From the NCBI RefSeq assembly GCF_009812035.1, contig NZ_VZIZ01000014.1:62001-126000 (forward strand): 64,000 nt of DNA. Direction: 5' to 3'. The position numbers were made by a program, and so were the translations under genes. This document shows, one piece after another, positions 28,241 through 45,450 of this stretch. Each line of letters opens with the position of its first letter. The first letter of the stretch is position 1. Origin of the DNA: Psychrobacter nivimaris (GTDB lineage: Bacteria > Pseudomonadota > Gammaproteobacteria > Pseudomonadales > Moraxellaceae). The notes beneath the pieces were generated by a model that was not told the origin of the DNA, did not search any database, and saw only the letters and a program-made list of their open reading frames with translations.

Positions 28241-28282
28241 TGAAAATATAATTCTGCGCTAATATGCTTCACTTGAATGAGT

Positions 28283-28305
28283 ATTAGAAATAGAATTTTT
28301 CTAAT
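28283..28305. terminator. Weak AT-rich hairpin between convergent genes
   Basis: ATTAGAAA and TTTCTAAT form an 8-bp stem around a 7-base loop. It is the only structure in the 94-bp gap between the UvrA2 stop and the RT stop and may serve as a poor bidirectional terminator. Confidence 0.4.
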
Positions 28306-28334
28306 AATCATTTTTTATAAATATAAATAAATAT

Positions 28335-29774
28335 CTATGCAGGTGTCTCTTGCTGCACTTGCAAACGCTCAATCCTATCTAGATAACTATGTCCCAATTC
28401 TGGCTCTGCCGAGGCTATCCAAGCGGCATATCCTGCCAGCGTATTTAAAGTCTCATCCGCGCGTAATTTGCCACCTGACTCTAGTTTATGAACGGCTGCA
28501 CGCAACATTTTTTTGATTTGACGAGATACCCTGGGTACGCCTTGTCCATTGACCACCATGCCTGTCACTTGTTGCTGATTGCCTTTACGAATCACGCGCG
28601 TTTTATCATTATTCAACGCAAAACCTTCTTCGCGTAGTATCTTATGGACTGAGCCGAGCAGTTGCCCGATTAGCTTATTGTGCTGCGTATCGGCTTGTTT
28701 CTTTGCGATGCTGGTCGTGGCTTTAATCGTTGTTTTAGCCTTCGATTTGGGTTTGGTGTCTTCAATAGCGGGAACACTAAAGGTCAAGTCATCGGCGTAA
28801 CGGCTATAACGTAGCCCCAACTTTTCTGCCAACCCTGTCAAGCGGCGATCAAGATTTAGGCAAACGATGTTTGTTAATGCAGGACTGGTAGGCGCGCCTT
28901 GTGGCAAGGCTCTATCACCTAATGCCACATAGTAGGTAACGCCATCTTGCTGCACCACTTGTCTGGGCGACTCCGTACAGAGTAATGCCAGTAATGTCGA
29001 AATTTGCTCTGGGTAGCCAGCATGACGAAAGACCCCTTTGACACGGCGCCAGCTCACGCTAGGAAAGAAATCTTTGACATCCAACTTAATAAGGAGCTCG
29101 CTGTTGCTATGTACTGCTGCGTTAGTCACGATAGATTTGCCACGTACAAAGCCATGGGCGGCACCATGTGTCGTTAAGTTATTCAAAATATTGTGCAAAA
29201 TCCAGCGTTGCACAAACTTCAAACGTGGTATCGGCGACCATATTTGACGCGCTGTGCCATTGCGTTTGGCAATAGTAAAATGCGAATAAGACAGATTGGT
29301 GGCAACCTCTCTTTGATAGCACAATCCTTTTAACTGCGGGATGGTAAGGTTAACTGCTTCTGCTAACTCATTATGTTTACGCAGCAGTGGCAGTTTGTTT
29401 TCAATCAGCCGATTGGCCGCGTCTTTGATATCCCATTTATCGGTACTGGTATCGTCCGTCCAATATACTTTCCGGCCAAGATAAACCATGTGATGCGCTT
29501 TGTATGCTTGCCAAGCAGCCTTTTTGAGACTTTTTTCTTCAGCTGCTTCCTTTTTTAAGGCTTTTTTATAGCGATCCCGTTCTTTTGGGCTCATATTGTC
29601 GACAGGTTGACGCTCGACCATAAAGCCTTGACTGACTAGCTGCTGCTGAACATATTGGTAACGTCCGCCTGCCAGCTCAATATCTTGCCATAGTTGCTGC
29701 CACTGACGCTCAAAGGGCGTGGCATTAGGCACAGGGGTTATATAATCATTCTGCTGCTCTGTCTGCGTCGTCAT
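28335..29774 (-). CDS. Retron-type reverse transcriptase
   Basis: RNA-directed DNA polymerase that makes the branched RNA-DNA (msDNA) of a retron. RT motifs are in order: LDVKDFFPS with Asp232, PQGAPTSP at 291-298, the catalytic YADD at 326-329 and NNDKT at 389-393. Both retron hallmarks are present: NAAVH (NAxxH) at 218-222 and VTG at 403-405. It is 479 aa, longer than typical retron RTs (about 300-400 aa), because of a roughly 140-aa N-terminal extension with a charged helical stretch (KKALKKEAAEEKSLKKAA) and a Lys/Thr-rich insert at about 341-365. There is no maturase or group II intron domain. It is the last gene of a four-gene operon, three bases after the SWIM gene. The predicted RNA partner lies at 43441-43720 on the other strand. 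Confidence 0.95.
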   Translation of the reverse strand: MTTQTEQQNDYITPVPNATPFERQWQQLWQDIELAGGRYQYVQQQLVSQGFMVERQPVDNMSPKERDRYKKALKKEAAEEKSLKKAAWQAYKAHHMVYLGRKVYWTDDTSTDKWDIKDAANRLIENKLPLLRKHNELAEAVNLTIPQLKGLCYQREVATNLSYSHFTIAKRNGTARQIWSPIPRLKFVQRWILHNILNNLTTHGAAHGFVRGKSIVTNAAVHSNSELLIKLDVKDFFPSVSWRRVKGVFRHAGYPEQISTLLALLCTESPRQVVQQDGVTYYVALGDRALPQGAPTSPALTNIVCLNLDRRLTGLAEKLGLRYSRYADDLTFSVPAIEDTKPKSKAKTTIKATTSIAKKQADTQHNKLIGQLLGSVHKILREEGFALNNDKTRVIRKGNQQQVTGMVVNGQGVPRVSRQIKKMLRAAVHKLESGGKLRADETLNTLAGYAAWIASAEPELGHSYLDRIERLQVQQETPA

Positions 29775-29777
29775 ACC

Positions 29778-32030
29778 TTACACCCCTTGGTTTTCGATAA
29801 AGCCTTTGGCTTCAAATCTGGCAATATGTTGTAAAAATGCGGCTTTGGCTTGAGCAGGCTGATTGAACACCAGCTGCTGGCGCGTATCCTTGTCACCTAT
29901 TGTTTGTTCAATGGTAATCTTCTTATGGGCAATGGTGATGTAAACATAAGCAATAGCGGTCTCTTGTGCGGTTAACGCTTGTGTCTTATCGCTTGTAGTC
30001 GCGTGTATCTGAGCAGCTGGTTGGGCTAAGGCCGTTAAATCAAGCGTCGGTGCAGAAGGTAATGTCATCAACGAGCTATTGGATGCTACTTGTACGCTTT
30101 CTTTTTTATTCTTAGGCTGATTAAAGCGCTTACTCGGTACGCGTTTACTCAAGACACGAGTGTCATGCCAACTATCATTGCCCGTATTGTTTGGGTCGTA
30201 TTGATTATATCTAAGTCGTAGCACAATAAGATGCGCGCACACGCCATGAGTGAGACGATGTTGCAAGTACTGCGGACAGCTACATTCCGCCTTGGTAACT
30301 AGCCCTTCATCGCCTAATTGCAGCTGGCTGTGATAAGTACGTCTGTCTTCTTCGACATGAATATCTGCACGAATAGTAATACCTTTGACAGCGACAGTCT
30401 CAACTGTGAATTTCTGCACAGCATCTGTACGGCCAATCAAATCAAAAGCCTGCTTTTCTGCTTCGTTGTGATAAGCGAACTGTGCCATATCAAGCGGCAC
30501 TTGGCTCAAAGGTCTGTAGTGATACAGCTGCGTCGCTATCTCATAGCGAATTAAGCCTTGCTGAGTACCTGACAGTAACCACTGCTGTACTTGTGAGTGA
30601 GAAACAGGCACAGACGTTAATGAAGCATCTGCTGATAGCGACTTTACCAAATCTTCTAGCGTACTAGGGGTATTTTCCAGTGTCTTAATTAATACAGACA
30701 AGCCATTATGCTCATCGTTATTATCATTATTACTATCATCTAAGGTTGCTTTACTACTGTCTGATAACCCTTCAATAGCAGCTAATGTATTTTGCAGTGG
30801 GCGCTTTGGCAGTAACAAGTCAAAGTTTAACGACTGTGACCAATTGGCTTGGCTAAAGCCTGTCATGGCAAAGGTGAAATGAAAGCCTTGACCTTTTAGT
30901 GTCCAATAGCTTGGCATGCCTTGACCCAGTAGCGATACTGAAACGCTATCAGTATGTGGCAACAGACGTTTTAATAGGCTGAGACGACGGCGACCCCATA
31001 AGCGAATGAGCTTTGCTTGCTGACCTTGATAGGGCTTTTGCTGTTGGCTGACTTGGCTAGTAACAGTGATGTCAAACGGTTCTAATATAATCACCGGCAG
31101 CTGCTGAGGTCTAAGCTCAATTAATAGTCCACGGCGTTTGCCTTTGATATCAGCATGCATGCGCAGCTCAAACAACACGTTGTATAGCGCGATTGGATCG
31201 AGATGGATGGTGTCTTGTGGCAATTGACCTGCAGACTGTACTTGCAGAAGTGCTCTGACCCAGCTTTTGGGCACATTGATGCGCTTTTCTATGATCTGTT
31301 TTTTCACGGTGGGCGTGGTTACTGTACTATCAGTATCTGCTTCAGCGGTCTCTGGCATGGTTTCGAGTAATTGTAAACCGACCGCTTCATGACCAATGTC
31401 TAATATCGTTTGTTGATGATCGCGGATTTTCTCAATACCGTTAAACAATGCCGTACTGTAATCAATGCTTGTTGTGCCAAGGATAGCTTCGGCACTTTGC
31501 TCAAAAATCTCATTGGTCAAGGTCAGCTGAGCATAGCAGCCTTCATCACGGCTAAACACCTCAAAGCTAACACCTTGCTCATGCACCTGAATAATCGGGT
31601 CCAAAATACAAAAAGCCAGTGGGTCATTGTCGAACAACCACGTGAAATAATCACGCTGCGCAGTAAATAGGTTTTTATTGCTGCTAGCACGGCGCATCTG
31701 CATAAATACCGTATACGCTGAGCGGTCTTTTGGTACATAGCGATAATCACTACTCACCACATCAAACAGCGCTAGCAAACTGTCACGAAAGACAAGGGGA
31801 GATTTGACCTTACCGTGGAAGTTAACCTCCGATCGATTCAGCTGAGCAAATAGTGCCACATGCTGAGTGTGTTCGGTCGTTTGCGCCTCCGACAGTGAGT
31901 CTGACGATTCGTTAACTTGACTGATTTGGCTAGGTGCGGCGTAGTCCAACTGCATCATCAGGCCATCAGTGTTTGCCACTACTTCTGACTCTGTTTCTGA
32001 TGCTTGGTCTAATTGATTATCTATAGTCAT
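29778..32030 (-). CDS. Winged-helix/SWIM zinc-finger protein of the retron operon
   Basis: SWIM-domain protein, probably a nucleic-acid or protein-binding accessory factor. The SWIM zinc motif is seen as CSC at 583-585 and CAH at 598-600 (Cys-x-Cys-x12-Cys-x-His). A likely winged-helix segment precedes it at about 450-510 (LVKSLSADASLTSVPVSHSQ, then TQQGLIRYE). The N-terminal 400 residues are mixed alpha/beta and I cannot assign them. It is 750 aa. Its ATG overlaps the giant gene stop by four bases (ATGA) and the RT start follows after three bases, so the three are translationally coupled. The biochemical activity is unknown. Confidence 0.85.
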   Translation of the reverse strand: MTIDNQLDQASETESEVVANTDGLMMQLDYAAPSQISQVNESSDSLSEAQTTEHTQHVALFAQLNRSEVNFHGKVKSPLVFRDSLLALFDVVSSDYRYVPKDRSAYTVFMQMRRASSNKNLFTAQRDYFTWLFDNDPLAFCILDPIIQVHEQGVSFEVFSRDEGCYAQLTLTNEIFEQSAEAILGTTSIDYSTALFNGIEKIRDHQQTILDIGHEAVGLQLLETMPETAEADTDSTVTTPTVKKQIIEKRINVPKSWVRALLQVQSAGQLPQDTIHLDPIALYNVLFELRMHADIKGKRRGLLIELRPQQLPVIILEPFDITVTSQVSQQQKPYQGQQAKLIRLWGRRRLSLLKRLLPHTDSVSVSLLGQGMPSYWTLKGQGFHFTFAMTGFSQANWSQSLNFDLLLPKRPLQNTLAAIEGLSDSSKATLDDSNNDNNDEHNGLSVLIKTLENTPSTLEDLVKSLSADASLTSVPVSHSQVQQWLLSGTQQGLIRYEIATQLYHYRPLSQVPLDMAQFAYHNEAEKQAFDLIGRTDAVQKFTVETVAVKGITIRADIHVEEDRRTYHSQLQLGDEGLVTKAECSCPQYLQHRLTHGVCAHLIVLRLRYNQYDPNNTGNDSWHDTRVLSKRVPSKRFNQPKNKKESVQVASNSSLMTLPSAPTLDLTALAQPAAQIHATTSDKTQALTAQETAIAYVYITIAHKKITIEQTIGDKDTRQQLVFNQPAQAKAAFLQHIARFEAKGFIENQGV

Positions 32031-35000
32031 TGACTGTCTCCTTCACCCTGATTGCTTTTTTGACTGCTGTCCTGACTATACGCCAACGGACGCTTTTGCT
32101 GTGCTCGTATCATGGCACGTTGCCAGCGGCGTAGTACTTTATAAGCAAGCTTCTGAATGTCTGAATTTTCATGTGCCATGAGCATCGTCAGCCATTGTTC
32201 GATATTTGGATCATGTAGCTGTCCAAGCGCTTCGATAGCACGGATGCGAACCGTCATCTCCATGTTGTCATTACTTGCACAATGATAAAGTGCGTCAGCG
32301 TCTTTTGCTCTGATCCACTGTAGTAGCTGTTGGTTGATTGGTATCTCGGTAGACGAGCCGTTATGTTTTAGCGCATTGTTTTTCAGCGCATTCTTTACTA
32401 CAGTTATTATGGATTTTTGGGTAGATGTACCGCTTTGTTCAATACGAGCAATCACAGTTCCTAGCAAGGATTGGTTGTCGTAAGTGAGCTGCGATTGAGT
32501 TGCTGTCGAGACAACGCTCAACGTTGGCACGATGCTTGATAGCATCTTATCTTCAGCGACAGGTCTAGCCAGCAATGCTAACAGCGCTTGCTGCCACCAA
32601 CCGCTAACAGTCGTAGAGAGCAGTGGAATAGAGGTGATGGTCAATGGTTGACGAGCATCATTGAGCCACTCAAGCATTGCCGCGATCTGCTTGGCTGCTA
32701 CTTTATCGACAGCACCTTTAGCAGTTTTGATGGACGCATGACGCATGATTAACCACACCAGTTGCGAGATGGTGGTGCGTACTTGCTCAACCATGCTAAT
32801 CCACTGACTATTATTGATGGTCGTCGGACTGCGGTTGATGGTATCGATAAGCGTGTGCCATTGCTCGCTTGCAGTGTCAAAACGCTGCTGCAACATCGCA
32901 ACCATCTCTTTATCAAGATAGCTGGTCGGATATTGGGTCAGATAGCACAGTCCAATATGCTGTGTCAGTATGTTACTACTGCTAATCAACGCGGTAAGCT
33001 GCGATGTTGGCATGTCTTGCTTGGCCATAATGGCATTTTGCAGTGCCATCAAGGTGTCGGCTGGTAAGTGCGCGCCATGCTGGGTGATAAATGCTGTCAG
33101 CTCATCGATGCTGCTATTATCAATGATACGCTTTAGGCTCAAACGCTCAGTTTCTTCTATAAAGTCAGTGTTATAGCTTTGAATGGCTGCCCAATCATAA
33201 GGGTAAACCTGCGATGCGAGGCTGCCCCAAGTTTTCTGTGCCGCAGTATAAGCCACCATAAGCACTGCACGGTCTAGGTTTCTCATCTTTAAGATATCTA
33301 AAATTAATGCTTTATTGGCATCGCTATCGTTCATCTGCAGTAGCCATACCGCATGCCTTTGTGGACGGAAGAATATGGCTTTATCGATATGAGTGCGGAT
33401 ATAGGTGCGAATTTGTTCCCAAGCAGGCGTTGTGTTGAGCCAGCGCAGTCCATTTAACCAATGGACAATGGCGGGATTGGTGAAATGGACGGCGGGGTCT
33501 GACAAGTGCGATCTTAATAGCTCAAAAATATGCGAACTATGCTCAAAGTCACCACCTTGTGCAAGGCGACCTAAGGCTTCGCTAGCCACGTCTTGTAAGT
33601 AGTGCTCGTCGTCCTCGGCCAGTTTGATTAACTTATCATAGGCTTTGTATAAGGTATGAACCTGTAAGTTTTTATCAGCATTGTCCGTAGGCGAGCTAGC
33701 ATTAGGCGAATGAGTATTTTGATTTTGGTTGTTACTGTTGCCTAGCAACTCGCCAATGGCTAACACACTGCAGCTGCGGAATTCAGCATCAGGGTTATAA
33801 TCGATCGTGGCCATCAAGATATTGACCCCATCAGCATGACCGCATTTAGCGAGTCCTTCAGCTGCGGCAAATTGCACATCGGCGTCTTTATTGCGTAGAG
33901 CGTTTTGTAATGAGGCAATGCTGCCGTGTCGTCTTTTGGCTCGATATGCCAGTGCCTCGACCAACTTAAAGGTATGGTTGGCTGGCATCTGCTCGTAGGC
34001 TAGCGCTAAAGCAGTATCAATGCGCGAGGATAAATCACTGTTGCCCGATTGTACCCATGCCAGTGACGGTAATAGCTGCGCGGCATGAGCATAATCACTA
34101 TGATTCATAAGCGTGGTAAACAGTGACAACAAGACTTGCGAGTTTCTAGGGTGCTGACGTTGTAACCAACGGGTGTCTTCACGCTCGTCTAGGTAGTCGT
34201 CGACGTTTTGATCGTAACCGCTGATTTTTACTAAGGTATCAAATAAATATTTACGCTCTTCTTTATTTTTTTGCGGTGTGTGCTCAAACAGATTCTCTAA
34301 ACGCTGTAGTAATGGCGCAGCCAGATGCGTGTTACGTAGGTCAGCGATATCTGAGTAGATAACTTGTTTGGGTTTGTTGATATGTGGATCATCAAGTAAG
34401 GCTAATAATCGTAAGTGCGCTTCATTGGCAACCTGTTCAGCAGTTGCAATATCAAAACTGCTCTCTAAACCACTTTCAAAGCTACCATCTAAAACATTCT
34501 TATGTATGAACTGGTACGATGTGAGTGCATCGATAAGCAAGTTCCAGCTACGGTAACTCTCATTACTGGCCTGAGCGTCTTCAGCAAAATCAAATAAACT
34601 ATCAAATAGCGTGCTGTCCGCAAAGAGTACGTCATGAAACTCGACCAGTTGACTCAGTGCTTGATATTTTGCATTCCAATCATCACCCTTCACAGCCTGC
34701 AGCAAAAACGTCAGTTTGTCTTGACGCTGCACTGACGGCGACTGACTGTTTGCAAAAGGCGTGACAATGACTTGTTTCCACTCAGTAACGATCTGAGGCA
34801 GTAACGACTGACAATAAGTCTGTAGCCCAAGCAAGCTGGCTGGCAGATGGCCTAGTCGGCCTTTTAGCAGCTGATAGGTCTCTTCTGCTAAGGTGTGATT
34901 ATTGGTTTTTAACAAATCAATGAGTTGTTGATCAGCGCTACTGATGACAGTCACTGTATCCGATGGTTTGCTTTGCTGCTGTACGGCATTGTTATTTACG

Positions 35001-38000
35001 GTATCTAGCAATAGATCCAAGCCGCGTTTGACCATATCACGGTAGGGCGTGCTCATGGCATAGTCAGCCAGCTTTTTGGCTGGCATGTCCAGCTCATACA
35101 AGCATGCCCAAGCCAGCTCACGAGTGTCAAAACTACTGTGGTTGAGTAGTGGTAACAACACGCGACTGGTACTGTCTCGCCAGTCCTCATCGTTATTAGT
35201 GTCAAACTCTGATGATTGAGTAGCAAGCCACATTAGCCCTCGAATGGCTTGGTCTGTGGTGCTGCTATTCGCATAATAATCATCGCCTGCGCGTATGACG
35301 CCAATCCAAGCGCCAAAGGCAAGAGACTGGTAAGGATAATGCAACTCAGAACTGTCTTGTTGTTCAGTAGGAGAGCTATCGACTGTTTGCGTATCGCCTG
35401 CTACATCATTAACAGTGGTCGTAACTGGGTGAGCACTTAACAAGGCCTGTAAACTGCGCTGCCATTTTTGTAATGTCTCAAAAACATCGTCCTCATCGTC
35501 ATAGTAGTCATGGGCGAGTAATTCAGATAAGTTACAAATGACACTAATGGTTTGTGCGCGTACCAATGGCTGATGATGTCGACTGAGGTTGGCGAGCTGT
35601 TGTAAGTTTTCGGTACTGACGGTTGTCAGAATACTTGCTCGGATAGAGACCGTATTATGCGACTGTCCTTTAATACCACCTTTATCTGCCGTGTTTGGCA
35701 TGGCATCCATCATCATTGTAATGACTTCAGAGTGAGCGGATAAAATACCGCCTAATTGACGTGACAAGTAATCACTTAGGTACTGCCACGTTGACGATAG
35801 TGCTTGCTGGTTATTGCGTTGTTGTACGTCATTCGGGTAACGAGCGAGTATGTTGGCGTAGACTACTGCCGTGTCATTATCAGCAAAGCTTAATGCTTCT
35901 ATCAGTCGATCGGGCCTGACAGTGCTAGTAGCGGTCTTTTCAGGAGCTTGCCTGCCACCTTGCAAGCCATTCTGTAAATCATCAAATATCAATAACAGTC
36001 TGGCTGCTACTGCATAGGACTCTGACTCAAACAAAGGCTGTAATTGTCGTGCATGTGTAATACCTAAACCGTGCTGCGCTTGTAGCCAATGCGTAGGGGT
36101 CATCGGTGCAATAAGCGTACTAAGATTGTCTGTTTCGTCTCTTATGTCATGAGTAAGGAAGTACTGCCCGCGAGCATCACCTAAAATAGCCAAACATAAA
36201 CTGGCTGATTGACTGATAATGGCGCGCTCATCTTTTTGCCATTTCACCAGTAGATCAATGTCCTCAAAAGAAACTATCTGCGTAAGTGTTGGAGCAAGTG
36301 ATTTAAAATCGGCGTCAGGGTGGTTTAAATATTTATCGTACCAGTTAAGCGCGTTGTATGTTGAGGGATAAGCTAGCTTTGATAAACCAAATAATGCTTG
36401 GCCTACATGACTGTACCACTGAGTATATGTTTCACTTTTTTTGTCCTGAGAGGGTATTGGTAGATCTAAGTAATGCTTAAAGACTTGGTACGCTTGCTCA
36501 TCACTTCGCTTTGCCTGTTCTTCGTCAGCATATAAACGAGATTGGCTGGCCAGTAGTTGAGCGACTGTCAGCTGAATGTCAGGATAAGGGCTGTTTAAGG
36601 CTGCGGTAATCAATGCTTCATGATGATTCGATTGATCATCGGTGCTACTATCATCTAGGCTACTGTGATCGGCTAAAATAGTAGGCTGTAAGTCTGTTAG
36701 TGCCAAAGCGACCGTCAAAGCTTGTTTACGCAGCTCAATACTGTCATCAGCGAACATAACCACGAGAGCTGGCATCAGTTGTGTCAGCTGAGTCGTATTC
36801 GCTCTGGCTTGCACTGTCGTAAGGGCCAGTTGCTTGGTATCCGCATAAGGGCTGGCAAGTGCGTTTAACATTACGTCAGCAAACCCTAAATGCTTGCTTT
36901 GTTTGAGTGCGATGTCAAAGGCTTGTTTGCGAATAGCGGCAAACGTATCTGCAAAAAACAAGGTTAAGACAGCTTGATTAGTCTTTTGGTGATTCGTTTC
37001 TTCAATTTTATTTGTTTTATGCTTCGAATTCATCGCTAGCAACAGTCGTTGCCATTCTTCTATCGCCACTTGATGCACATCTTCAAAGAGGCTCTGCTGC
37101 AATAGCTCAATGATGTCAACGATGGCGCTGTCAGAAACGTTTTTAGAAATAGTGTCAGATGACTGCTTAAATTGGCGGTTTAATAGAACTTTAACCACTT
37201 CTAACCGAATGCTGGTAAAAGGATTATTCAATGCCTGTAGCAATATGTCTGTCATCTCTGACGACATCTGAGCGCTTTTATCACTGCTATTATCACCACT
37301 ATTTGAGCTATCTGGTGCAACATGCTTTAAAAACAGCGCTAAAGACTGCTCGTGAATGTCTTGATGTTTAGAAGCAAAACCCGTCGCTGCCCAAGACAAT
37401 GCATTGTCTGCCAATTTGCCATAGGCTTGCATAGCCACTTGTCGCACGCCAGCGTCTTTATCGTCTAGTAATGTCGATAGGACTGCTTTGGCGTCTTCTA
37501 TATTTAAATGACCAAGCGCGGTGGCGACACCAGCACGGATGATGGCACTGTCTTCATGGCTCATCAGACTAATCAGAGTACCAAACGCACGTTTGTCTTG
37601 TAGGCAAGCCAGCGCATAAGCCGCTCGGAAACTGATATCTTCGTGACTATTGCTTAAGCTTTGTAATAAGGGCTCTAACGTGTCATTGCCTAGCTTTATG
37701 GATTCAGCAGTAGGCTTCTTGGATTTGGCCGTTTTAGCCTTATTTTTAGACTTAGATGCTTGGGTACTATCTGCTTGCGAGATAAAATCTTGCGTGGACA
37801 AGGTTAAACGGATCGCCTCATCGGATTGTTTAACATTATTATTCGCCGCTGTACTAGCGTTATCTAGTAGCGTGCCGCGTAGTAAGCGAAAGTCATCAAA
37901 ATCAGTCAGGGTACGCAATGTTTGCGTGTCGCCTTGCTGTTTTAACGCCTCTATCAACTTGGGTTGAGACAGTAATGAGACATAAAATGCCGTTTGCCTA

Positions 38001-39748
38001 ATCTCTGTATTACGATGGTTCTGTAGCAGCATCAACTGACGCGAGACTTCAAGATGGTTTAGCATGCCGCGCTGATACAGACGAATTAACCCTGATTGGA
38101 CAATGTCTGATTGATTGCAGTCTAATGCCATCAAATCTGCTTGAGGACTGTGCTCTGGCAACAGTGTCTCAAGTGAGGCCAATGCTTGCTTACGAATATT
38201 CGCAAAACTGTGTGACAACGCCTCTCTTAAAATAGGTAAGATGCGGCGCTTGCTCGTGGCATCCTTCATCGCGACCTTTAGGTAACCTTGTAACGCAGAA
38301 GCCACCACTTCTTCGTAGTAACGGTTTTTAAAGGCTTCTTCTAGATAATGCAGCGGGCGCTTCGCCGTACTTGCGCGGTCGGCCAAGGCATGAAAAGCAG
38401 CAAGACGTACTTTTGCACTGTGCGCCGAGCTTAGTTGCTGCTCTAAAACCTGGGCAGTTTTATCAAGATTAGTAGTAGCAATCCACTGTACCAATTGCAA
38501 TGCTTGGTTGGCCGTGAGTGTGTCGCTATCAGCAAGTAATTTTTTAACCAGCTCTAACGTTTGGTTATCTGCTTGCGCCTGTAGCAGCGCTAGGCCTTCT
38601 TTAAACGACACATTGTTATTGTTTGAGGTATCTGTCAGTAACTGGCCGATTTTCTGATAGCCGTCTTTGATGATATAAGTAACTGGCAGCAGCTTACTGT
38701 TTTGTGCCGTACTATTTTGTGAGGTGCTACTCTGTGACGAACTTCTAGTATGGTCAATAGGTATGAAACGTAGGCTCTGATCGGCACTGACTACGATGAG
38801 CATTGGTTGCTCAGCGTAAGAAGATAAGACGATCTGTCGAGCCTTGGTTAGATCCTCTTTACAGCTGTTTGGTTGACCTTTATCAAATGCCCACGATTTA
38901 ACACTCTTGTCATCTGCTGCGGTAAATAACCGTGTGTCTGAGACACAAAGCGCCGTGATCATTTCACTGTGTTGGCTAGACTTGGCTCTATCAATAGGGT
39001 GCAGGTCGCCTTGGACATGAGTACGGTACAAGCACTTATCTGCACCTGCTGAGAAGAAGTATTGACCGACCGGCTCAAAACAAAGCGCGTTCACTTTACC
39101 TTGATGGAGCTGTTTGCGGCTACTTAGATTAAGCTGAGCACCATCTGATGCCCATTGATAGCTACTAACATCTCCTGCTTTATCTGCCACCACGAGCCAC
39201 GAGCCATCACTTGACGTTGTTAGCGCGGTTAATGCAGGCTCCTTACTTGATACTGCTATAGAAGACGAATAAGGTTCAATGATGACAGTACTGCTGGCTT
39301 GGCTTTCCTGATAAGGCCATACTACGATATGTTTTGGGTATAGAATAGCCAACGCATATTGTAGTGGTGCCATTGCTACAGCATGGCCTATAGCATTGTT
39401 GTTATTTTTAGGTGCATCGAGCAAGGATTTGGCACTGGTCTTCTTAACTTTCTTGGCTTGCCAATCCGTTTGATAAAGATGACCATCATCACCAATCATA
39501 ATAATAGTGCTGTCATCTATTTTGGTGATGGCTTGCATCGCACAAGGCAGCACAGTTGTCGATAAGCTAAATTGTTCACCTTGTTGATCAAGGACGTATA
39601 AGACCGTAGCAGATGCTTGCTGCTGGCGAGTAATAAAAAGACTGCGCCCATCTTGCTTGGTTGTCTTTTGAGTTGCCGCTTGGGTACTGTTGGCCTTACT
39701 GACTAAGCCCATAATTTGACCCCAATAGGGGAGTGTTATTGTTTTCAT
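32027..39748 (-). CDS. Giant WD40-like plus HEAT-repeat scaffold protein of the retron operon
   Basis: Protein of 2573 aa with no recognisable catalytic motif. Residues 1 to about 340 look like a WD40-type beta-propeller (for example LHQGKVNALCFEPVGQYFFS and MITALCVSDTRLFTAADDKS). From about 380 to the end it is almost wholly helical repeats of HEAT/PBS-lyase type, with clear units such as DDKDAGVRQVAMQAYGKLA, NKDADVQFAAAEGLAKCG and MTVRIRAIEALGQLHD near the C-terminus. Such solenoids usually act as scaffolds or sensors. No signal peptide or membrane segment is evident. It lies 102 bp after the BRCT gene and overlaps the SWIM gene by four bases. The frame is open for 7.7 kb without interruption, so selection for the full length is likely. 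Confidence 0.85.
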   Translation of the reverse strand: MKTITLPYWGQIMGLVSKANSTQAATQKTTKQDGRSLFITRQQQASATVLYVLDQQGEQFSLSTTVLPCAMQAITKIDDSTIIMIGDDGHLYQTDWQAKKVKKTSAKSLLDAPKNNNNAIGHAVAMAPLQYALAILYPKHIVVWPYQESQASSTVIIEPYSSSIAVSSKEPALTALTTSSDGSWLVVADKAGDVSSYQWASDGAQLNLSSRKQLHQGKVNALCFEPVGQYFFSAGADKCLYRTHVQGDLHPIDRAKSSQHSEMITALCVSDTRLFTAADDKSVKSWAFDKGQPNSCKEDLTKARQIVLSSYAEQPMLIVVSADQSLRFIPIDHTRSSSQSSTSQNSTAQNSKLLPVTYIIKDGYQKIGQLLTDTSNNNNVSFKEGLALLQAQADNQTLELVKKLLADSDTLTANQALQLVQWIATTNLDKTAQVLEQQLSSAHSAKVRLAAFHALADRASTAKRPLHYLEEAFKNRYYEEVVASALQGYLKVAMKDATSKRRILPILREALSHSFANIRKQALASLETLLPEHSPQADLMALDCNQSDIVQSGLIRLYQRGMLNHLEVSRQLMLLQNHRNTEIRQTAFYVSLLSQPKLIEALKQQGDTQTLRTLTDFDDFRLLRGTLLDNASTAANNNVKQSDEAIRLTLSTQDFISQADSTQASKSKNKAKTAKSKKPTAESIKLGNDTLEPLLQSLSNSHEDISFRAAYALACLQDKRAFGTLISLMSHEDSAIIRAGVATALGHLNIEDAKAVLSTLLDDKDAGVRQVAMQAYGKLADNALSWAATGFASKHQDIHEQSLALFLKHVAPDSSNSGDNSSDKSAQMSSEMTDILLQALNNPFTSIRLEVVKVLLNRQFKQSSDTISKNVSDSAIVDIIELLQQSLFEDVHQVAIEEWQRLLLAMNSKHKTNKIEETNHQKTNQAVLTLFFADTFAAIRKQAFDIALKQSKHLGFADVMLNALASPYADTKQLALTTVQARANTTQLTQLMPALVVMFADDSIELRKQALTVALALTDLQPTILADHSSLDDSSTDDQSNHHEALITAALNSPYPDIQLTVAQLLASQSRLYADEEQAKRSDEQAYQVFKHYLDLPIPSQDKKSETYTQWYSHVGQALFGLSKLAYPSTYNALNWYDKYLNHPDADFKSLAPTLTQIVSFEDIDLLVKWQKDERAIISQSASLCLAILGDARGQYFLTHDIRDETDNLSTLIAPMTPTHWLQAQHGLGITHARQLQPLFESESYAVAARLLLIFDDLQNGLQGGRQAPEKTATSTVRPDRLIEALSFADNDTAVVYANILARYPNDVQQRNNQQALSSTWQYLSDYLSRQLGGILSAHSEVITMMMDAMPNTADKGGIKGQSHNTVSIRASILTTVSTENLQQLANLSRHHQPLVRAQTISVICNLSELLAHDYYDDEDDVFETLQKWQRSLQALLSAHPVTTTVNDVAGDTQTVDSSPTEQQDSSELHYPYQSLAFGAWIGVIRAGDDYYANSSTTDQAIRGLMWLATQSSEFDTNNDEDWRDSTSRVLLPLLNHSSFDTRELAWACLYELDMPAKKLADYAMSTPYRDMVKRGLDLLLDTVNNNAVQQQSKPSDTVTVISSADQQLIDLLKTNNHTLAEETYQLLKGRLGHLPASLLGLQTYCQSLLPQIVTEWKQVIVTPFANSQSPSVQRQDKLTFLLQAVKGDDWNAKYQALSQLVEFHDVLFADSTLFDSLFDFAEDAQASNESYRSWNLLIDALTSYQFIHKNVLDGSFESGLESSFDIATAEQVANEAHLRLLALLDDPHINKPKQVIYSDIADLRNTHLAAPLLQRLENLFEHTPQKNKEERKYLFDTLVKISGYDQNVDDYLDEREDTRWLQRQHPRNSQVLLSLFTTLMNHSDYAHAAQLLPSLAWVQSGNSDLSSRIDTALALAYEQMPANHTFKLVEALAYRAKRRHGSIASLQNALRNKDADVQFAAAEGLAKCGHADGVNILMATIDYNPDAEFRSCSVLAIGELLGNSNNQNQNTHSPNASSPTDNADKNLQVHTLYKAYDKLIKLAEDDEHYLQDVASEALGRLAQGGDFEHSSHIFELLRSHLSDPAVHFTNPAIVHWLNGLRWLNTTPAWEQIRTYIRTHIDKAIFFRPQRHAVWLLQMNDSDANKALILDILKMRNLDRAVLMVAYTAAQKTWGSLASQVYPYDWAAIQSYNTDFIEETERLSLKRIIDNSSIDELTAFITQHGAHLPADTLMALQNAIMAKQDMPTSQLTALISSSNILTQHIGLCYLTQYPTSYLDKEMVAMLQQRFDTASEQWHTLIDTINRSPTTINNSQWISMVEQVRTTISQLVWLIMRHASIKTAKGAVDKVAAKQIAAMLEWLNDARQPLTITSIPLLSTTVSGWWQQALLALLARPVAEDKMLSSIVPTLSVVSTATQSQLTYDNQSLLGTVIARIEQSGTSTQKSIITVVKNALKNNALKHNGSSTEIPINQQLLQWIRAKDADALYHCASNDNMEMTVRIRAIEALGQLHDPNIEQWLTMLMAHENSDIQKLAYKVLRRWQRAMIRAQQKRPLAYSQDSSQKSNQGEGDSQ

Positions 39749-39850
39749 GGTGTTATCTCAGTTGAGGTGACGTCATATTTTTTTGAGTATCTTTTTTTGA
39801 ATATAAAAGCTTGCTAGTAGCTATTTATCTATATCTGTTTGCCAAAGCCG

Positions 39851-42800
39851 TTAAGCCGATGCCACTGGCTGCAGATTTTTAGATAGCTCAGGATAGCGAT
39901 GCAATAGCCGCGTGACGGCAACCAAACACGCATGACGCTCCATCTTGCCTGCCGAGTGCGTAAAGGTGAATAGTGTTGGCATAATGAGCGCTGCAAAGGT
40001 GCTGTCAGCCAATGCCACATCACGAAAAGTCTCAATCAAAGCCAATTTGGCACGACTCGCAGATATGGGTTTTAGCGTGATATTGCTATCTGACTCAGTT
40101 GCCTCATATGACTGTGATGATGCTGATCTTTTATCTGAGTAGCGTTGTTGTTTATGCTTACTGCTGTCACTAGCAGCCGGCTCTTGCGAACCGCCTAGAC
40201 GGCCAGGTGGTAGCTCAAAAAGACCACGGCGTAGCAGCATTAGTAGCTGATCGATTTCTGCAGGCAAGCGTGCCAAACATCTATCTGACTGCTCTGTTAT
40301 GACTGGTTGATTACTGCTGTCTGTATTTTTGACAACATCTTTATCGGTGCTGGTTGGTTGCCAGTTTGGGGATACGTGACGCGCCTTATAGTGTTTCCAT
40401 AGCATGGTCACGGCGGCATAACGTACTTCTCGGTCTGTGCTTTGGGTTAATCGATATAAAGACTGCACATCTTGGAAATTGGCATGACGCTGCAGTAAGG
40501 TGATACCGATTTGGCGAGCGACTCGCGCTTTGCTTTCAATCAACGTATTCAACATGCCAGCATTCAATTGTGCTGACTGAACGTGATAATGTCGATTGGC
40601 AACGGATGGCTTATCCAATAGCGCACGCTTTAGCAGTTGCGTGACCTCAGTATAGGGAGATTCTGCCATCATCAGCCATAGGGCTGGCGTCGGTTGCCAT
40701 GTCGCCATCTCATACTCACTCAGTAATAAGCCAAATGCTCGCAGCTGGCTGTTACGGTGTTGCAACAAAGGAATGACACGCTCCGCATCAAAAAACGAAG
40801 AAGGAACAATCGCATCAGGATCGACAGGTCTGTCTGTCAGTGCCATACAGATCTGTTCATGATGATGACTAAGGTAGCTGATCGCAAGCTCACTGATGGG
40901 TGCAGTGGCGTCATCTGTTGCCATATGCCACAGTGCATTGGCACCTGCAAAAGTATCGTCTTCAGACACCTCTCTCGATTGACCACTCAGCATCTGTAAA
41001 AATGCAGTTTCGGAAATAATCTTTAGCGGCGCACCATCGGCGATTAAGCTTTCGGCTTTCACTTGCTTGCCACCTTTACGGCCATTGCCATATAACGGTG
41101 AACCATCATCACCGATGACTAGATAATCCAACTTGCCATTAACAGCACCACTGATGGCACCATTAGCTGCTTTCACAACTTTTTCGGCCTCGCCACGAGT
41201 CATGCTTTGCATCTTGCCCGTGAATAAATAGCATTGGCCGGTTAAATCTACTTCAGTAGCAGCGTCGCTACTCGAGTCTTGATTGTCAGTGCTGTTACTG
41301 GAAGCATTGTCAGTAGAGTCGCCTTCATTGCTGTCGAGATATGCGATAAAGTCGGCAGGCAAGAACCCTTTGTTAATGCGTTCAATCGCAAATTCACGAT
41401 AGAGTGCTTGTTCGCTATGCGCAAGGTTCATAAGCCAGTCGAAACCTAAATCTATCGGCGCAAACCGACGCACATCAGATAGCCAATTCCTCACGTTTTC
41501 TGCTAAGTACTCATCAAAGGCCAAGTGCTTTTGCCAGTTTTTAATAGGAGTGTCAGCAGATTTTAATTGTTCAACATATTCACTCACTTGCCAATCAGGC
41601 TCATAGGCAAGTGCATGCCAATAGCTCATATCAAGCGTCGCGGCTGACAGTATATCTTCATCAAACCAATCGGTAATAGTCGATTGTGATAGTGGATGTA
41701 ATAGCAGTGTTTGCCATACTGCCGCATTTACTTGGCTCAAATCCAAACGTCTGAGCTGGTCCAACGTAAAGTCCATGCAGTAGCTGTCATTGCAATCACT
41801 AGCATTGTAGTAACTACCATTATGAGCAGAGAAGTCCTGTTGCTCTGGTATGTCAAGCTGCTGGGCAACGCTAATAAAGTATTCAGTCCCTAGCTCTTTG
41901 GCACTATAAAGCTCAGGCAGTTTTTTTATCGCAAACTTTACGCTGTGTGTTCTACCGCTAGTCAGTCGTTCAAAAAACCACTCAGGGGTCAAATCGCGCC
42001 TTGTAAAGTGTTTGCTAAGTTGTTTGCTCGCGGTTTGATAGTGATGCTCTGTGTCTAATAGCTGACCCCAACCGTTGACACCGATATAAGCAACAGGATC
42101 ACGACTTAAGATATTGTTGATAGCAAATGCTCTAACAGGCTCATAATCTGACATTGCCAGTAGCATCAGTTCAGTGAGCGATAAGTCTTGAGCGTAGCTT
42201 TTGGCATAGCCAATCGCATATTGATAGGCGGCAGGATAGTGTGAATGGAGTAGCTGCAGTACCACTTGATGCAAGCCCAATGTTTGAAATTTAGACTTTT
42301 CAAAATGCGGTGAGTTTTCCAATAGCCAAACTATCATCTCATCACGCGCTTTGCTGTGCGCTTGTCCGGCAGATAAATATTGTAGCGTCTCACCACTCAC
42401 ATCACGTAATTGGGTCTTAAAGTCGTGTTTTAGGCTATCGGTTGCGAACTGTCTGATAGCCTCGTTTTTGGCGATAGCCAATAGCTGGATAAGTGGTTCT
42501 GGGTCTCGTTGCCACGCCTCAGAGAACGCGCGACCTTTAGCATCAAAAAGCTTGCGAGGTGAGCGGCTGCTAAATCGATTGACGCCATAATCAAGGCTGT
42601 TATGGAAGCAGATATGATTGAGTACCCAGCTGTTTGTTTGTTCAAGGCTGCCTGCCGTCATGGCTGCGTCATAGCTGGCGAGTACAGAGACGGCAGCATC
42701 AATATAGCCAATTGGCATTTGCTGTCCCAGTTGACGCAAATAACGCCATGCTCTAAGGCTCATATAGGTTTTTGTAGCTAGGCTGACCGCAGAGTTGGCG

Positions 42801-43273
42801 GTTTGATTAAAACGCTGCAAATCAATCTTGGCAGCTATTTGTCCAAAAATCTCATAATCTTGAGAAAATTCAGCTTGTTTATAAATACACTTTAAACCCT
42901 TCCACACACCATAGCTGACTGGCAAAGCTGTAATGGCTTGTTTTAAGATGGCTCTAGAATACGCGCTGCCATCTTCCCACAGTGCGGTCAGTATTATGTG
43001 GATTTTGTAGCGATCTGGGAGGGGGTAAACGCCTTCGTTTGCTTCCAGTTTGACAATCATTGCCACGCGCTCTGCAAACTGTACTTCGGGGTGTTGCTCC
43101 CGAAACTGATGACTAAATATCTTATCTAAAAACCGATCAAAAGTAAGCTCATGCTCAGGGATGGGTGTTTCAGGAATCGCAACAGCTTGAGTTGCCAATG
43201 TACATAATTTATCGACCAAACTTGGATCTTGGACTTGCCAAGCTTGCTGAATTTGTGAAAATGACAGACTCAT
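39851..43273 (-). CDS. BRCT-domain helical-repeat protein, first gene of the retron operon
   Basis: Protein of 1140 aa. A BRCT domain is seen at about residues 674-765: LTGQCYLFTGKMQSMTRGEA, then VNGKLDYLVIGDDGS and KIISETAFLQML. BRCT domains bind DNA ends, phosphopeptides or ADP-ribose. The rest is mostly helical and repeat-like (EPLIQLLAIAKNEAIRQFA, DYEPVRAFAINNILSRDP, QSTDREVRYAAVTMLWKHY), reminiscent of HEAT solenoids and of the next gene. An acidic Ser/Asp/Asn linker (about 648-672) precedes the BRCT. No enzyme motif is visible. It is the promoter-proximal gene of the operon; TATAAT at 43415-43420 on the minus strand is a possible -10. The predicted retron RNA is transcribed away from it. 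Confidence 0.83.
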   Translation of the reverse strand: MSLSFSQIQQAWQVQDPSLVDKLCTLATQAVAIPETPIPEHELTFDRFLDKIFSHQFREQHPEVQFAERVAMIVKLEANEGVYPLPDRYKIHIILTALWEDGSAYSRAILKQAITALPVSYGVWKGLKCIYKQAEFSQDYEIFGQIAAKIDLQRFNQTANSAVSLATKTYMSLRAWRYLRQLGQQMPIGYIDAAVSVLASYDAAMTAGSLEQTNSWVLNHICFHNSLDYGVNRFSSRSPRKLFDAKGRAFSEAWQRDPEPLIQLLAIAKNEAIRQFATDSLKHDFKTQLRDVSGETLQYLSAGQAHSKARDEMIVWLLENSPHFEKSKFQTLGLHQVVLQLLHSHYPAAYQYAIGYAKSYAQDLSLTELMLLAMSDYEPVRAFAINNILSRDPVAYIGVNGWGQLLDTEHHYQTASKQLSKHFTRRDLTPEWFFERLTSGRTHSVKFAIKKLPELYSAKELGTEYFISVAQQLDIPEQQDFSAHNGSYYNASDCNDSYCMDFTLDQLRRLDLSQVNAAVWQTLLLHPLSQSTITDWFDEDILSAATLDMSYWHALAYEPDWQVSEYVEQLKSADTPIKNWQKHLAFDEYLAENVRNWLSDVRRFAPIDLGFDWLMNLAHSEQALYREFAIERINKGFLPADFIAYLDSNEGDSTDNASSNSTDNQDSSSDAATEVDLTGQCYLFTGKMQSMTRGEAEKVVKAANGAISGAVNGKLDYLVIGDDGSPLYGNGRKGGKQVKAESLIADGAPLKIISETAFLQMLSGQSREVSEDDTFAGANALWHMATDDATAPISELAISYLSHHHEQICMALTDRPVDPDAIVPSSFFDAERVIPLLQHRNSQLRAFGLLLSEYEMATWQPTPALWLMMAESPYTEVTQLLKRALLDKPSVANRHYHVQSAQLNAGMLNTLIESKARVARQIGITLLQRHANFQDVQSLYRLTQSTDREVRYAAVTMLWKHYKARHVSPNWQPTSTDKDVVKNTDSSNQPVITEQSDRCLARLPAEIDQLLMLLRRGLFELPPGRLGGSQEPAASDSSKHKQQRYSDKRSASSQSYEATESDSNITLKPISASRAKLALIETFRDVALADSTFAALIMPTLFTFTHSAGKMERHACLVAVTRLLHRYPELSKNLQPVASA

Positions 43274-43414
43274 AGAAATTTGCCTTAATTTCTATTTTGT
43301 CAGTGCGCGTAATTTTGTAGCACCATAAAAGCGCGTTTCACAGAAAATATCAAGGACTTTTGTAAGGAAATATATGGTCTGCGACATATAGCGTCGCGCA
43401 CGATTTTATTTGCA

Positions 43415-43428
43415 ATTATATATTGACA
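43415..43428. promoter_or_regulatory. Possible divergent promoter elements between retron operon and retron RNA
   Basis: TATAAT on the minus strand (43415-43420) faces the BRCT operon, and TTGACA on the plus strand (43423-43428) faces the predicted RNA. Neither has a well-spaced partner hexamer that I can identify, so this is only a candidate shared control region. Confidence 0.35.
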
Positions 43429-43440
43429 ATAATAACTGTT

Positions 43441-43720
43441 ATGAGGCAAACTTAACGAGTTGTGAGATTTAGCGTTTCACCGTTTACGGTGAGGGGCGAC
43501 GTTGCGTCGTCCACGAGTCAAGCCATTACATTTTACCCAAGGAAGACTGTTTCAGTCCTGCTAATACCTAGATAAAGGCCCTAGTGCATTAGCTCAATCA
43601 CGATTGCGTGATTGCGCCAGCGAGCTAATGACACTAGGGCCTTTATCTAGGTGCAGTCCAGTGAGTCTTCCATGTACCAGGTCATGAGGTAGATTACACA
43701 ACAATTGAGTGTGACATCAT
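43441..43720 (+). ncRNA. Predicted retron msr-msd RNA
   Basis: The plus strand has the order expected for a retron RNA. Repeat a1 at 43451-43464 pairs with a2 at 43697-43709 (GTTGTG/CACAAC plus CTTAA/TTGAG, with a small internal loop). TTTAGC at 43468-43473 follows a1 and resembles the priming-guanosine site of known retrons, so G43472 is the candidate branch base. Two msr hairpins follow: TCACCG/CGGTGA with a TTTA loop (43477-43492) and GGGCGACG/CGTCGTCC with a TTG loop (43494-43512). The msd is a stem of 20 plus 9 bp with one bulged A (43567-43595 with 43622-43651) capped by AATCACG/CGTGATT; GGAAGACT/AGTCTTCC (43541-43548 with 43664-43671) may close it. It lies on the opposite strand from the RT. 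Confidence 0.8.
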
Positions 43721-43749
43721 TATGATGGCATTCAAGGCCTTTAAAGCAA

Positions 43750-43792
43750 AACCGGAGTAGGGCTGTTTATTCAGCGCTACTCCGGTTTTTTA
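43750..43792 (+). terminator. Terminator of the predicted retron RNA
   Basis: AACCGGAGTAG and CTACTCCGGTT form an 11-bp stem around a 16-base loop, followed by TTTTATT on the plus strand. No plus-strand protein gene lies upstream, which supports a plus-strand RNA gene ending here. Confidence 0.85.
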
Positions 43793-43814
43793 TTGCCTGA
43801 TTATTAGTTGATAA

Positions 43815-43849
43815 TAAAAAAGCCCTTTGTCTATCACAAAGGGCTTTTT
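43815..43849 (-). terminator. Terminator after the Anbu peptidase cluster
   Basis: AAAAAGCCCTTTGT and ACAAAGGGCTTTTT form a 14-bp stem with a CTATC loop. It follows the minus-strand peptidase gene by about 30 bp and would insulate it from the retron region. Confidence 0.9.
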
Positions 43850-43881
43850 AGTGCAGAAAATATGATTTTATACGGAGCTAT

Positions 43882-44622
43882 TTATCCCCAATAACCATCA
43901 GGACATTTAGGCAATTCAACTAACGTGCGACGTAACGCATCTGACCACTGATGACGAATCGTATTAAAGTACTCATCACGCTCATCAATACGTCGGCCGT
44001 TGGGCAGAGCTAGGCTGTCATTGTCATAAAGTACAAAATCTATCGGCATACCGACTGATAGATTTGAGTGAATCGTAGAATCAAATGACAGCATCAGCGC
44101 ACGTGCCGCGTGTCTTACATCCGTGTTGTAGCTGACAGAACGATCCAAAATAGGTTTGCCATATTTGCTTTCACCTAACTGAAAGAAGGGCGTATCTTCA
44201 GTGGCTTTGATGCAATTGCCTTCAGGATAAATCAGGTATAGCTCAGGTGGCTGTCCTTTTATTTGACCACCAAGCATAAACGAGCTGGTAAATGCACCAT
44301 CGCGAGTAGAGTTAGCGACTGCTTTTGCATGGTTCATAACATCACGCATACATTCACCAACCATTTGCGCGGCATCAAACAACGTCGCTACTGTATTGAG
44401 GTTACTCTCAGCACGCTGGTCAATGTCGCTTTGTAGTTTATTGAACACTGCCTGCGATGTCGCTAAGCTACCAGCTGTCTGTAGCACCATAAAGCGCTCG
44501 CCTTCAACGCCGTATTGATACAACTTTCTGAATGTCGATATGTGATCAACACCGGCATTCGTGCGCGTGTCACTGGCAAAGACCATACCGTCTTTTAGAC
44601 GAATGGCAGCACAATAAGTCAT
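43882..44622 (-). CDS. Anbu-type proteasome-like peptidase
   Basis: Ntn-hydrolase of the bacterial proteasome-related Anbu family (COG3484 type), a self-compartmentalised cytoplasmic peptidase. The start at 44622 is chosen because AAGGG lies upstream and the chain then begins MTYCAAIRLKDGMVFASDTR, placing the nucleophile Thr directly after the initiator Met; an upstream ATG at 44661 would bury it. SDTRTNAG and the AGSLATSQAV segment fit the family. The product is 246 aa. The neighbours (transglutaminase-like protein, ATP-grasp/alpha-E protein) are the set known to travel with Anbu, so it probably processes a peptide made by the ATP-grasp ligase. Confidence 0.92.
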   Translation of the reverse strand: MTYCAAIRLKDGMVFASDTRTNAGVDHISTFRKLYQYGVEGERFMVLQTAGSLATSQAVFNKLQSDIDQRAESNLNTVATLFDAAQMVGECMRDVMNHAKAVANSTRDGAFTSSFMLGGQIKGQPPELYLIYPEGNCIKATEDTPFFQLGESKYGKPILDRSVSYNTDVRHAARALMLSFDSTIHSNLSVGMPIDFVLYDNDSLALPNGRRIDERDEYFNTIRHQWSDALRRTLVELPKCPDGYWG

Positions 44623-44664
44623 AAAATACCCTTGATGAATAAACGTAATAAAAAATAGCAAACG

Positions 44665-45450
44665 CTATGATAGCTTTTTGACTAATACCAAACTGTAAAG
44701 ATTTTCGTAACCGCCGCCCATACGCACGCCGCGGACAGGCGCCGTATCTAGATAGTCTCGCCCAATCGCCACATACACATGTGAGTTTGGGGTAAATGCT
44801 TGATTTGAGATATCAAAAGTATACCAGTAACCATCCAGCCAAACCTCAGCCCATGCGTGACTGGCCATGTGATTTTCGGTATCGTCATACAAATAACCGG
44901 ACACATAACGCGCTGGAATCTGTTGATCGCGCAAGATACCTAAAAATACATGCGTATGGTCTTGGCACACACCGGCACTTGTCGCAAACGCCTCAGCAGC
45001 GGTCGTGCCCACATGCGTGACGTCTTTAACAAAAGGCATTTTCATAATAAGGGCACTTGCCATCGCCTTTAGGCTGTCATGAGTGGGCGTTTTTAGATAT
45101 GGTGCTGCAAATTCTCGCATCTCTTGTGAGCATTTGGTCAACGGGGTTTGTACGGTAAATAGCAGGTAGGGGACATGATCCATATCCTCTAAACGTTCGG
45201 TTTCGGTGTTGATCTCAACGATACCCGACGCCTGCATTTGTAAGTTGTTATGTGCCTCGTTACGACTGAGCGTGAGCCATGCATTACCAAAGCCGTCCTT
45301 TTGGTTGGTCGCCACTTTAGGCAGCATGACATCCCATTTATGAATGGTCTGATGCGGCATTTGCATGGGGGTCATGCGTATATACTGTACACTGCGCTGC
45401 GCTAGCTCATCGTAATAATAGTTGGTTTGGTGACTGATTTGAAGTTTCAT
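44665..45450 (-). CDS. Transglutaminase-like cysteine peptidase of the Anbu cluster
   Basis: Transglutaminase-fold protein of 261 aa. The N-terminal beta domain begins MKLQISHQTNYYYDELAQRS, as in COG1305 proteins. The catalytic triad is visible: Cys in SAGVCQDHTHVFLG, His in ASHAWAEVWLDGYWY and Asp in FDISNQ. It likely acts as a peptidase or amide-bond hydrolase rather than a crosslinker. It lies between the ATP-grasp/alpha-E gene (86-bp gap) and the Anbu gene (42 bp), all in one direction, so one operon is likely. Confidence 0.92.
   Translation of the reverse strand: MKLQISHQTNYYYDELAQRSVQYIRMTPMQMPHQTIHKWDVMLPKVATNQKDGFGNAWLTLSRNEAHNNLQMQASGIVEINTETERLEDMDHVPYLLFTVQTPLTKCSQEMREFAAPYLKTPTHDSLKAMASALIMKMPFVKDVTHVGTTAAEAFATSAGVCQDHTHVFLGILRDQQIPARYVSGYLYDDTENHMASHAWAEVWLDGYWYTFDISNQAFTPNSHVYVAIGRDYLDTAPVRGVRMGGGYENLYSLVLVKKLS

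What the first reader, a model, noticed from the sequence alone, without database searches (positions are those of the whole stretch)
28335..43792. Retron island with four large proteins: BRCT, giant WD40-HEAT, WH-SWIM and RT
Seen: an RT with NAxxH (218-222), YADD (326-329) and VTG (403-405), in a tight operon with a SWIM-finger protein, a 2573-aa WD40/HEAT protein and a 1140-aa BRCT protein, with a msr-msd-like element at the operon head. Known: retrons are anti-phage toxin-antitoxin-like systems pairing msDNA with effector proteins; I recall one published retron type with SWIM and HEAT-repeat partners but cannot confirm its details here. Inferred: this is a very large retron defence system, with the solenoid/propeller protein as sensor or scaffold and BRCT/SWIM as msDNA or target binders. 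The BRCT component and overall size (about 15 kb) look new or little described.
Basis: partly seen in the sequence, partly recalled or inferred. Interest (0 to 1): 0.95.

Follow-up and report, generated by a model that had tools for sequence, protein, structure and literature searches.

The report
Type XIII retron with clamp-like protein
A 15.6-kb island in a Psychrobacter genome carries an already catalogued kind of retron (type XIII): a reverse transcriptase, three large partner proteins and a separate RNA gene; one partner is predicted to fold like the ring clamps that encircle DNA, so the system likely guards against phages through a DNA hairpin that this partner would hold.

The parts
43459..43703 (+). 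msr-msd RNA, a1 to a2 (245 nt), divergent from the operon
   Evidence: a1 found in 24 of 25 operon heads including the window, the 25th ends at a contig edge; covariation; strand asymmetry; CM R1 132 bits, window is in its training set
43459..43471 (+). a1 arm; the predicted priming G is at 43472 in TAGC
   Evidence: GTTGTGAGATTTAGCG identical in all 24 heads where it was sought by exact match; TAGC is the commonest priming context (PMC6868368, passage)
43690..43702 (+). a2 arm
   Evidence: pairs with a1 in 17 of 17 rows; G-U to G-C and U-G to U-A changes in 3 rows
43476..43512 (+). two msr hairpins
   Evidence: two-sided changes kept
43566..43652 (+). msd hairpin; arms 43566-43586 and 43632-43652, top 43587-43631 inverted relative to relatives
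43423..43428 (+). -35 box TTGACA of the RNA gene (weak -10)
   Evidence: TTGACA or TTGCCA within 45 nt before a1 in 25 of 25 loci; not flagged by the consensus scanner
43750..43794 (+). intrinsic terminator of the RNA gene
   Evidence: terminator-like hairpin downstream in 24 of 25 loci by a loose rule of my own without shuffle control, weak in L075, the 25th truncated; not flagged by the stricter scanner
39851..43273 (-). HEAT/ARM protein with BRCT insert, 1140 aa
   Evidence: HEAT-ARM_XIII PDLC02921 1102 bits; solenoid model pLDDT 81.5
40985..41254 (-). BRCT domain, about residues 674-763
32027..39748 (-). WD40/HEAT giant, 2573 aa
   Evidence: HEAT-ARM_XIII PDLC02919 1831 bits; Pfam
29778..32030 (-). 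WH-SWIM protein, 750 aa
   Evidence: SWIM_XIII PDLC02972 498 bits
30843..31823 (-). predicted PCNA-like clamp fold, residues 70-396
30231..30284 (-). SWIM zinc finger, residues 583-600
28335..29774 (-). retron RT, 479 aa
   Evidence: RT_XIII PDLC02956 522 bits; PDB retron Ec86 RT E 1.8e-37
28237..43882 (.). island absent from near relatives (ends approximate)
   Evidence: 10 of 16 compared loci join both flanks across 30-60 nt

Best explanation
This island is a type XIII retron made of four genes and a divergently oriented msr-msd RNA gene, and it likely works as an anti-phage system in which a predicted clamp-like WH-SWIM protein would grip the duplex of the reverse-transcribed DNA hairpin and so hold a large HEAT/WD40/BRCT assembly inactive until a phage disturbs it. 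Shown: gene set, type, RNA strand and structure, fixed stem length with free core sequence, co-inheritance, an island that relatives lack. Predicted from a model: the PCNA-like fold of residues 70-396. Inferred: the RT primes from the G at 43472 and copies the msd hairpin into DNA; the clamp-like domain binds the ~30-bp duplex without reading its sequence, which would explain why length and pairing are kept while the core sequence changes; the conserved 8-nt bulge and cap would be the specific anchor, perhaps for the winged helix, as in the type IX retron; the BRCT domain, nearest to RFC1 and LigA, would bind 5'-phosphate DNA ends and so report phage replication or damaged DNA. Which chain is the toxic effector is not known; the giant or the HEAT-BRCT protein is my guess.
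Against: The WH-SWIM model is middling (mean pLDDT 65, pTM 0.57) and there is one model only; no PCNA family or PDB clamp is hit by sequence. Of the helices that would line the ring only 255-267 and 347-354 are clearly basic; 78-95 is net acidic. No AAA+ clamp loader was seen among the island's ORFs. A common fold shows no function. En-bloc replacement of the stem core in tandem copies is more than a purely sequence-blind grip predicts. The window's own msd top is inverted, which puts the conserved bulge on the other strand, so this very copy may be altered. The promoter's -10 is poor and the consensus scanner flagged neither it nor the terminator. No catalytic toxin domain was recognised.
Confidence: 0.4

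Rival explanations
1. The variable msd stem is a bait: each lineage or copy carries a different duplex that phage DNA-binding proteins or nucleases would attack, and that attack would free the effector.
For: Tandem copies differ at 34 of 58 stem positions against 4 of 215 elsewhere (L082) and 24 of 56 against 9 of 204 (L083); phage protein D5 triggers the type IX retron by binding msDNA (PMC13405049).
Against: No exact match of one Psychrobacter and two L082 stem cores in viral contigs, though a bait need not match; the 14 Mx162-like loci each gave one copy.
Confidence: 0.25
2. The stem varies for structural reasons: any perfect 29-30-bp hairpin works, and tandem identical palindromes would recombine, so copies with different stems survive.
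For: Constant length and pairing; long inverted repeats, and an inverted msd top in the window.
Against: The rest of the tandem copies is nearly identical, so homology remains.
Confidence: 0.25
3. The msDNA and partners serve a host function (DNA repair or replication checking) rather than phage defence.
For: PCNA, RFC1-BRCT and WGR themes are replication and repair themes; RTs that match RT_XIII at E <= 1e-80 are in 70 of 147 genomes of the myxobacterial class.
Against: Patchy in Psychrobacter (25 of 105), in an island that near relatives lack.
Confidence: 0.15
4. The upstream hairpin is a leader or terminator of the operon on the minus strand, not a retron RNA.
For: It lies directly upstream of the operon.
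Against: Wobble asymmetry, a1/a2 with TAGC, -35 box and terminator-like hairpin on +, homology to myxobacterial RNAs on the RT strand.
Confidence: 0.02

Closest known systems
Retron type XIII (PADLOC-DB 2.0 models; original 2020 classification recalled, paper not held)
   Same: RT_XIII, SWIM_XIII and two HEAT-ARM_XIII models match all four proteins
   Different: BRCT insert; RNA gene at the operon head and inverted instead of between SWIM and RT as in the myxobacterial loci seen here
Myxobacterial Mx162-like retrons (my label; L103-L116, and L117, L119, L121 of the same group)
   Same: Related RT (43-45% identity), SWIM upstream of RT in 14 of 14, giant before SWIM in the three longer loci fetched, RNA with the 8-nt bulge, R1 hits in 5 of the 5 short loci given
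   Different: RNA between SWIM and RT; CAGC context; no BRCT found by Pfam in L119. The Mx162 sequence itself was not at hand, so that Mx162 belongs here is likely, not proven
Retron-Kva2, type IX
   Same: WH partner beside RT and RNA; model for msDNA tip recognition (PMC13405049)
   Different: HEPN effector; small proteins; no clamp, HEAT or WD40 parts mentioned in the part read
PCNA and other DNA sliding clamps
   Same: Predicted fold of WH-SWIM residues 70-396
   Different: About 12% identity, no sequence-family hit, fused to WH and SWIM, no loader seen

Membership tests
Retron | Retron RT with NAxxH, YxDD and VTG | tested here: met
   exact motifs; solved retron RTs are the best PDB hits
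Retron | msr-msd RNA with paired a1/a2, priming G and msd hairpin | tested here: met
Retron | production of 2'-5' linked msDNA | not testable with these tools
   needs msDNA isolation
Retron type XIII | RT of the type XIII family | tested here: met
   RT_XIII 522 bits, next model 291 bits
Retron type XIII | SWIM partner and HEAT/ARM or WGR partner | tested here: met
   SWIM_XIII 498 bits; HEAT-ARM_XIII 1831 and 1102 bits
Retron type XIII | anti-phage activity | not testable with these tools
   no bench work
Mx162-like subgroup | RT grouping with the myxobacterial RTs that have the RNA directly upstream | tested here: not met
   window RT falls with Psychrobacter and G195 RTs (95/99); Archangium-type and Mx162-like RTs form their own set (100/100) (22 rows)
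DNA sliding clamp superfamily (WH-SWIM N-terminal part) | clamp fold | tested here: met
DNA sliding clamp superfamily (WH-SWIM N-terminal part) | ring assembly around DNA | not testable with these tools
   needs structure or biochemistry
BRCT (HEAT protein) | sequence match to BRCT domains | tested here: met
   RFC1 E 5e-7, LigA 4.5e-6 with profile A4; Pfam alone below cut-off

The most novel reading that the evidence does not exclude
Type XIII retrons are a bacterial DNA-clamp surveillance system: a PCNA-fold WH-SWIM protein encircles a fixed-length msDNA duplex whose sequence is free to vary, an RFC1-like BRCT or a WGR domain on the HEAT partner reads DNA ends, and competition by phage replication DNA for the clamp frees the killer. 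The same would explain the Mx162-like retrons of myxobacteria, relatives of the first retron found.
Probability: 0.25. Interest if true: 0.9.

Novelty: new variant of a known kind. Interest (0 to 1): 0.7.

Why it matters
msDNA was first reported from Myxococcus xanthus in 1984 (reference seen; that it was Mx162 is recalled), and none of my ten paper searches found the partners or function of the Mx162-like group. If the WH-SWIM protein is a clamp, the question of what msDNA is for in this group becomes directly testable: bind, image and swap the stem. The fixed-length, sequence-free stem also bears on its use as a carrier of chosen DNA.

Tried and rejected
Guide hypothesis: stem cores gave 0 exact matches in viral contigs; in the own genome a 17-nt core with up to 2 mismatches hit the msd itself twice and two other places, against 1 for the reversed control. 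Search of viral contigs for the msr head found none. WGR at the C-terminus of the WH-SWIM protein looked plausible by eye but hhalign against one WGR protein gave probability 0.1%: not claimed. Foldseek on the HEAT-BRCT model gives generic HEAT-type solenoids. R1 found nothing in L087, L090, L091, L097-L101, L118, L120, L122-L124, L053-L055 or the other-retron loci L028-L030 (37 sources given), nor in nine class loci, two of whose genomes did give it from longer stretches; RNAs of the WGR-type and minimal type XIII loci therefore remain unfound. First RT tree held a bad fragment (L099); it and L028, L053, L124 were dropped, and L123 gave no RT frame by my motif rule. Stem pattern: 46 loci given, 44 gave 46 RNAs; L059 (N run) and L081 (6-bp cap) gave none; L066 and L067 were not given. 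Copy counts are not used, since that script kept one match per strand. Literature; the one paper holding 'type xiii' and 'retron' is PMC11953036 (one sentence on Variovorax). PMC12548924, PMC11124354 and PMC8989520 were seen as passages only and say nothing on type XIII there. Of 42 papers with two of retron/sliding clamp/PCNA-like, 15 were listed; two of these hold 'retron', both on phage group II introns.

Full report
What is there. The window's minus strand carries four intact ORFs: 39851-43273 (1140 aa), 32027-39748 (2573 aa), 29778-32030 (750 aa) and 28335-29774 (479 aa). PADLOC models of retron type XIII match each: HEAT-ARM_XIII PDLC02921 over residues 1-1132, HEAT-ARM_XIII PDLC02919 over 1-2553, SWIM_XIII over 44-609, RT_XIII over 22-476. 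The host is a Psychrobacter: a contig named Psychrobacter sp. Pi2-1 has a 100% identical RT.

Co-inheritance. In 105 genus genomes the giant is found in 26, SWIM in 25, the HEAT-BRCT protein in 25, and the RT in 25 (genus rows, which examined 348 family genomes and found 37 with E <= 1e-60; of the 12 outside the genus, G195 and G199 match at E below 1e-150 and ten at E 7e-62 or weaker than 1e-75, as other retrons would). All four are in the same 24, of which G282 has broken frames; G329 lacks HEAT-BRCT, and G301 lacks SWIM and RT, both on short contigs. In 369 genomes drawn from the class, SWIM_XIII (E <= 1e-15) is in 8. The 7 others than the window's were searched for RT_XIII: 6 of 7 have it, in G613 and G655 on another contig than SWIM; G736 has none and its SWIM-like protein stands beside a DUF6493/DUF7824/DUF7825 protein.

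Island. Sixteen of the 30 loci fetched around the proteasome-like gene were compared with the window: ten show the window's two flanks (28231-28248 and 43880-43883) joined across 30-60 nt, one (L126) carries the retron, and five have other neighbours or only one flank. In four further relatives (L043-L046) the retron lies on the far side of the ATP-grasp/transglutaminase/proteasome-like genes, so the place looks like an insertion hotspot.

The RNA gene. Upstream of the operon a 245-nt RNA, 43459-43703, is conserved on the strand opposite to the operon in 24 of 25 operon heads including the window; the 25th head (L067) ends at its contig edge, and L066 is truncated after a1. Its a1 and a2 pair, the expected priming G sits in TAGC (the commonest context according to a review, PMC6868368, passages read), and two msr hairpins and a long msd hairpin follow. 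RNAalifold on 17 of these gives 78 pairs, 19 with two-sided changes. Over 62 of these pairs (the pairs of the msd top and one other were left out) 1052 of 1054 cells are standard on + and 979 on -. A -35 box (TTGACA or TTGCCA) stands before a1 in 25 of 25 loci (24 Psychrobacter heads plus L080), and a terminator-like hairpin follows in 24 by a loose rule without shuffle control, L075's being weak and the 25th locus truncated. A stricter consensus scan of the window flagged neither, the -10 being poor.

Where the RNA sits elsewhere. A covariance model of the first 102 nt (R1) finds the RNA in L080 (divergent, operon head), L081, L166 and L167 (same strand as the operon, operon head) and in myxobacterial loci (after SWIM and before the RT, same strand). 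On an RT tree of 22 rows the divergent ones form one set (95/99), the Archangium-type and Mx162-like ones another (100/100). The simplest reading is that the RNA gene moved at least once and was inverted in the lineage of Psychrobacter and G195. 'Archangium-type' and 'Mx162-like' are my labels. The close relatives of the L119 RT include a Myxococcus xanthus RT of 485 aa (P0153, 77% identity), and these RNAs carry CAGC after a1; the review gives CAGC for Mx162 and a 241-nt transcript. I therefore place Mx162 in this group as likely; its own sequence was not at hand, and that its RT has 485 aa is recalled.

The msd stem. An unguided hairpin search found, in all the Archangium-type RNAs of L048-L052 and L082-L084, a 29-bp stem, an 8-nt bulge on the 5' side of the RNA, a 7-bp cap and a 4-nt loop. 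A pattern built from the first finds then gave 46 RNAs from 44 of 46 loci: bulge GC(T/G)G(A/G)NNC, cap with 6 or 7 pairs, gammaproteobacterial stems of 29-30 bp with at most one bulged base, myxobacterial ones 33-37 bp because a bulged T joins a basal stem. In the window alone among 22 Psychrobacter RNAs the bulge falls on the 3' side, because its msd top is inverted. In 16 Psychrobacter relatives (of 23 with the RNA, near-duplicates left out) the stem core differs at 41% of compared positions against 7% in the rest and 4% in the top. L082 and L083 carry two tandem RNAs each, nearly identical but for the stem (34 of 58 against 4 of 215 positions; 24 of 56 against 9 of 204). L085 also has two R1 hits before its contig ends; their stems were not compared.

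How it most likely works. The RT makes msDNA from the + strand RNA (inferred). The clamp-like domain would hold the msDNA duplex without reading it, the bulge and cap being the anchor (inferred; the type IX retron gives the precedent of a WH protein at the msDNA tip, PMC13405049, abstract, introduction and first results read). The HEAT-BRCT protein and giant would form the regulated body, and a phage DNA or DNA-binding protein that displaces msDNA would free the effector, whose identity is open. [quoted passage not shown]

Verdict. A genuine member of a catalogued retron type, with an unusual RNA gene placement and a BRCT insert, and with a predicted clamp-like partner that gives a concrete handle on this group. 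Interest 0.7; new variant of a known kind.

Noticed in passing
window 43587-43631: The msd top is inverted relative to the 21 other scored Psychrobacter RNAs, including L063 from G327, whose contig has the length of the named Pi2-1 contig with the identical RT; real inversion between 21-bp arms or assembly error.
   Followed up: partly
L082, L083 (and L085): Two tandem copies of the retron RNA; in L082 and L083 the stems differ while the rest is nearly identical.
   Followed up: yes
G249 C1:659293-660258: A second, more distant retron-like RT in a genome that also has the type XIII locus.
   Followed up: no
G282 C54:89713-104361: A copy of the locus with stops or frame breaks in all four genes.
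   Followed up: no
G237 C35, G328 C22: The giant is split near its WD40 part into two frames.
   Followed up: no
L165 (G613): WGR_XIII and SWIM_XIII pair without RT beside it; an RT_XIII lies on another contig.
   Followed up: partly
L168 (G736): SWIM_XIII-like 457-aa protein beside a DUF6493/DUF7824/DUF7825 protein, no RT_XIII match (E <= 1e-20) in the genome: a possible RT-free relative of the module.
   Followed up: partly
L118 6471-7895: WGR plus beta-propeller protein beside the WGR-HEAT, SWIM and RT genes, a possible stand-in for the WD40 giant.
   Followed up: no
window 43882-47954: Proteasome-like, transglutaminase-like and circularly permuted ATP-grasp genes in a row beside the island; retrons lie on either side of this row in relatives.
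   Followed up: partly
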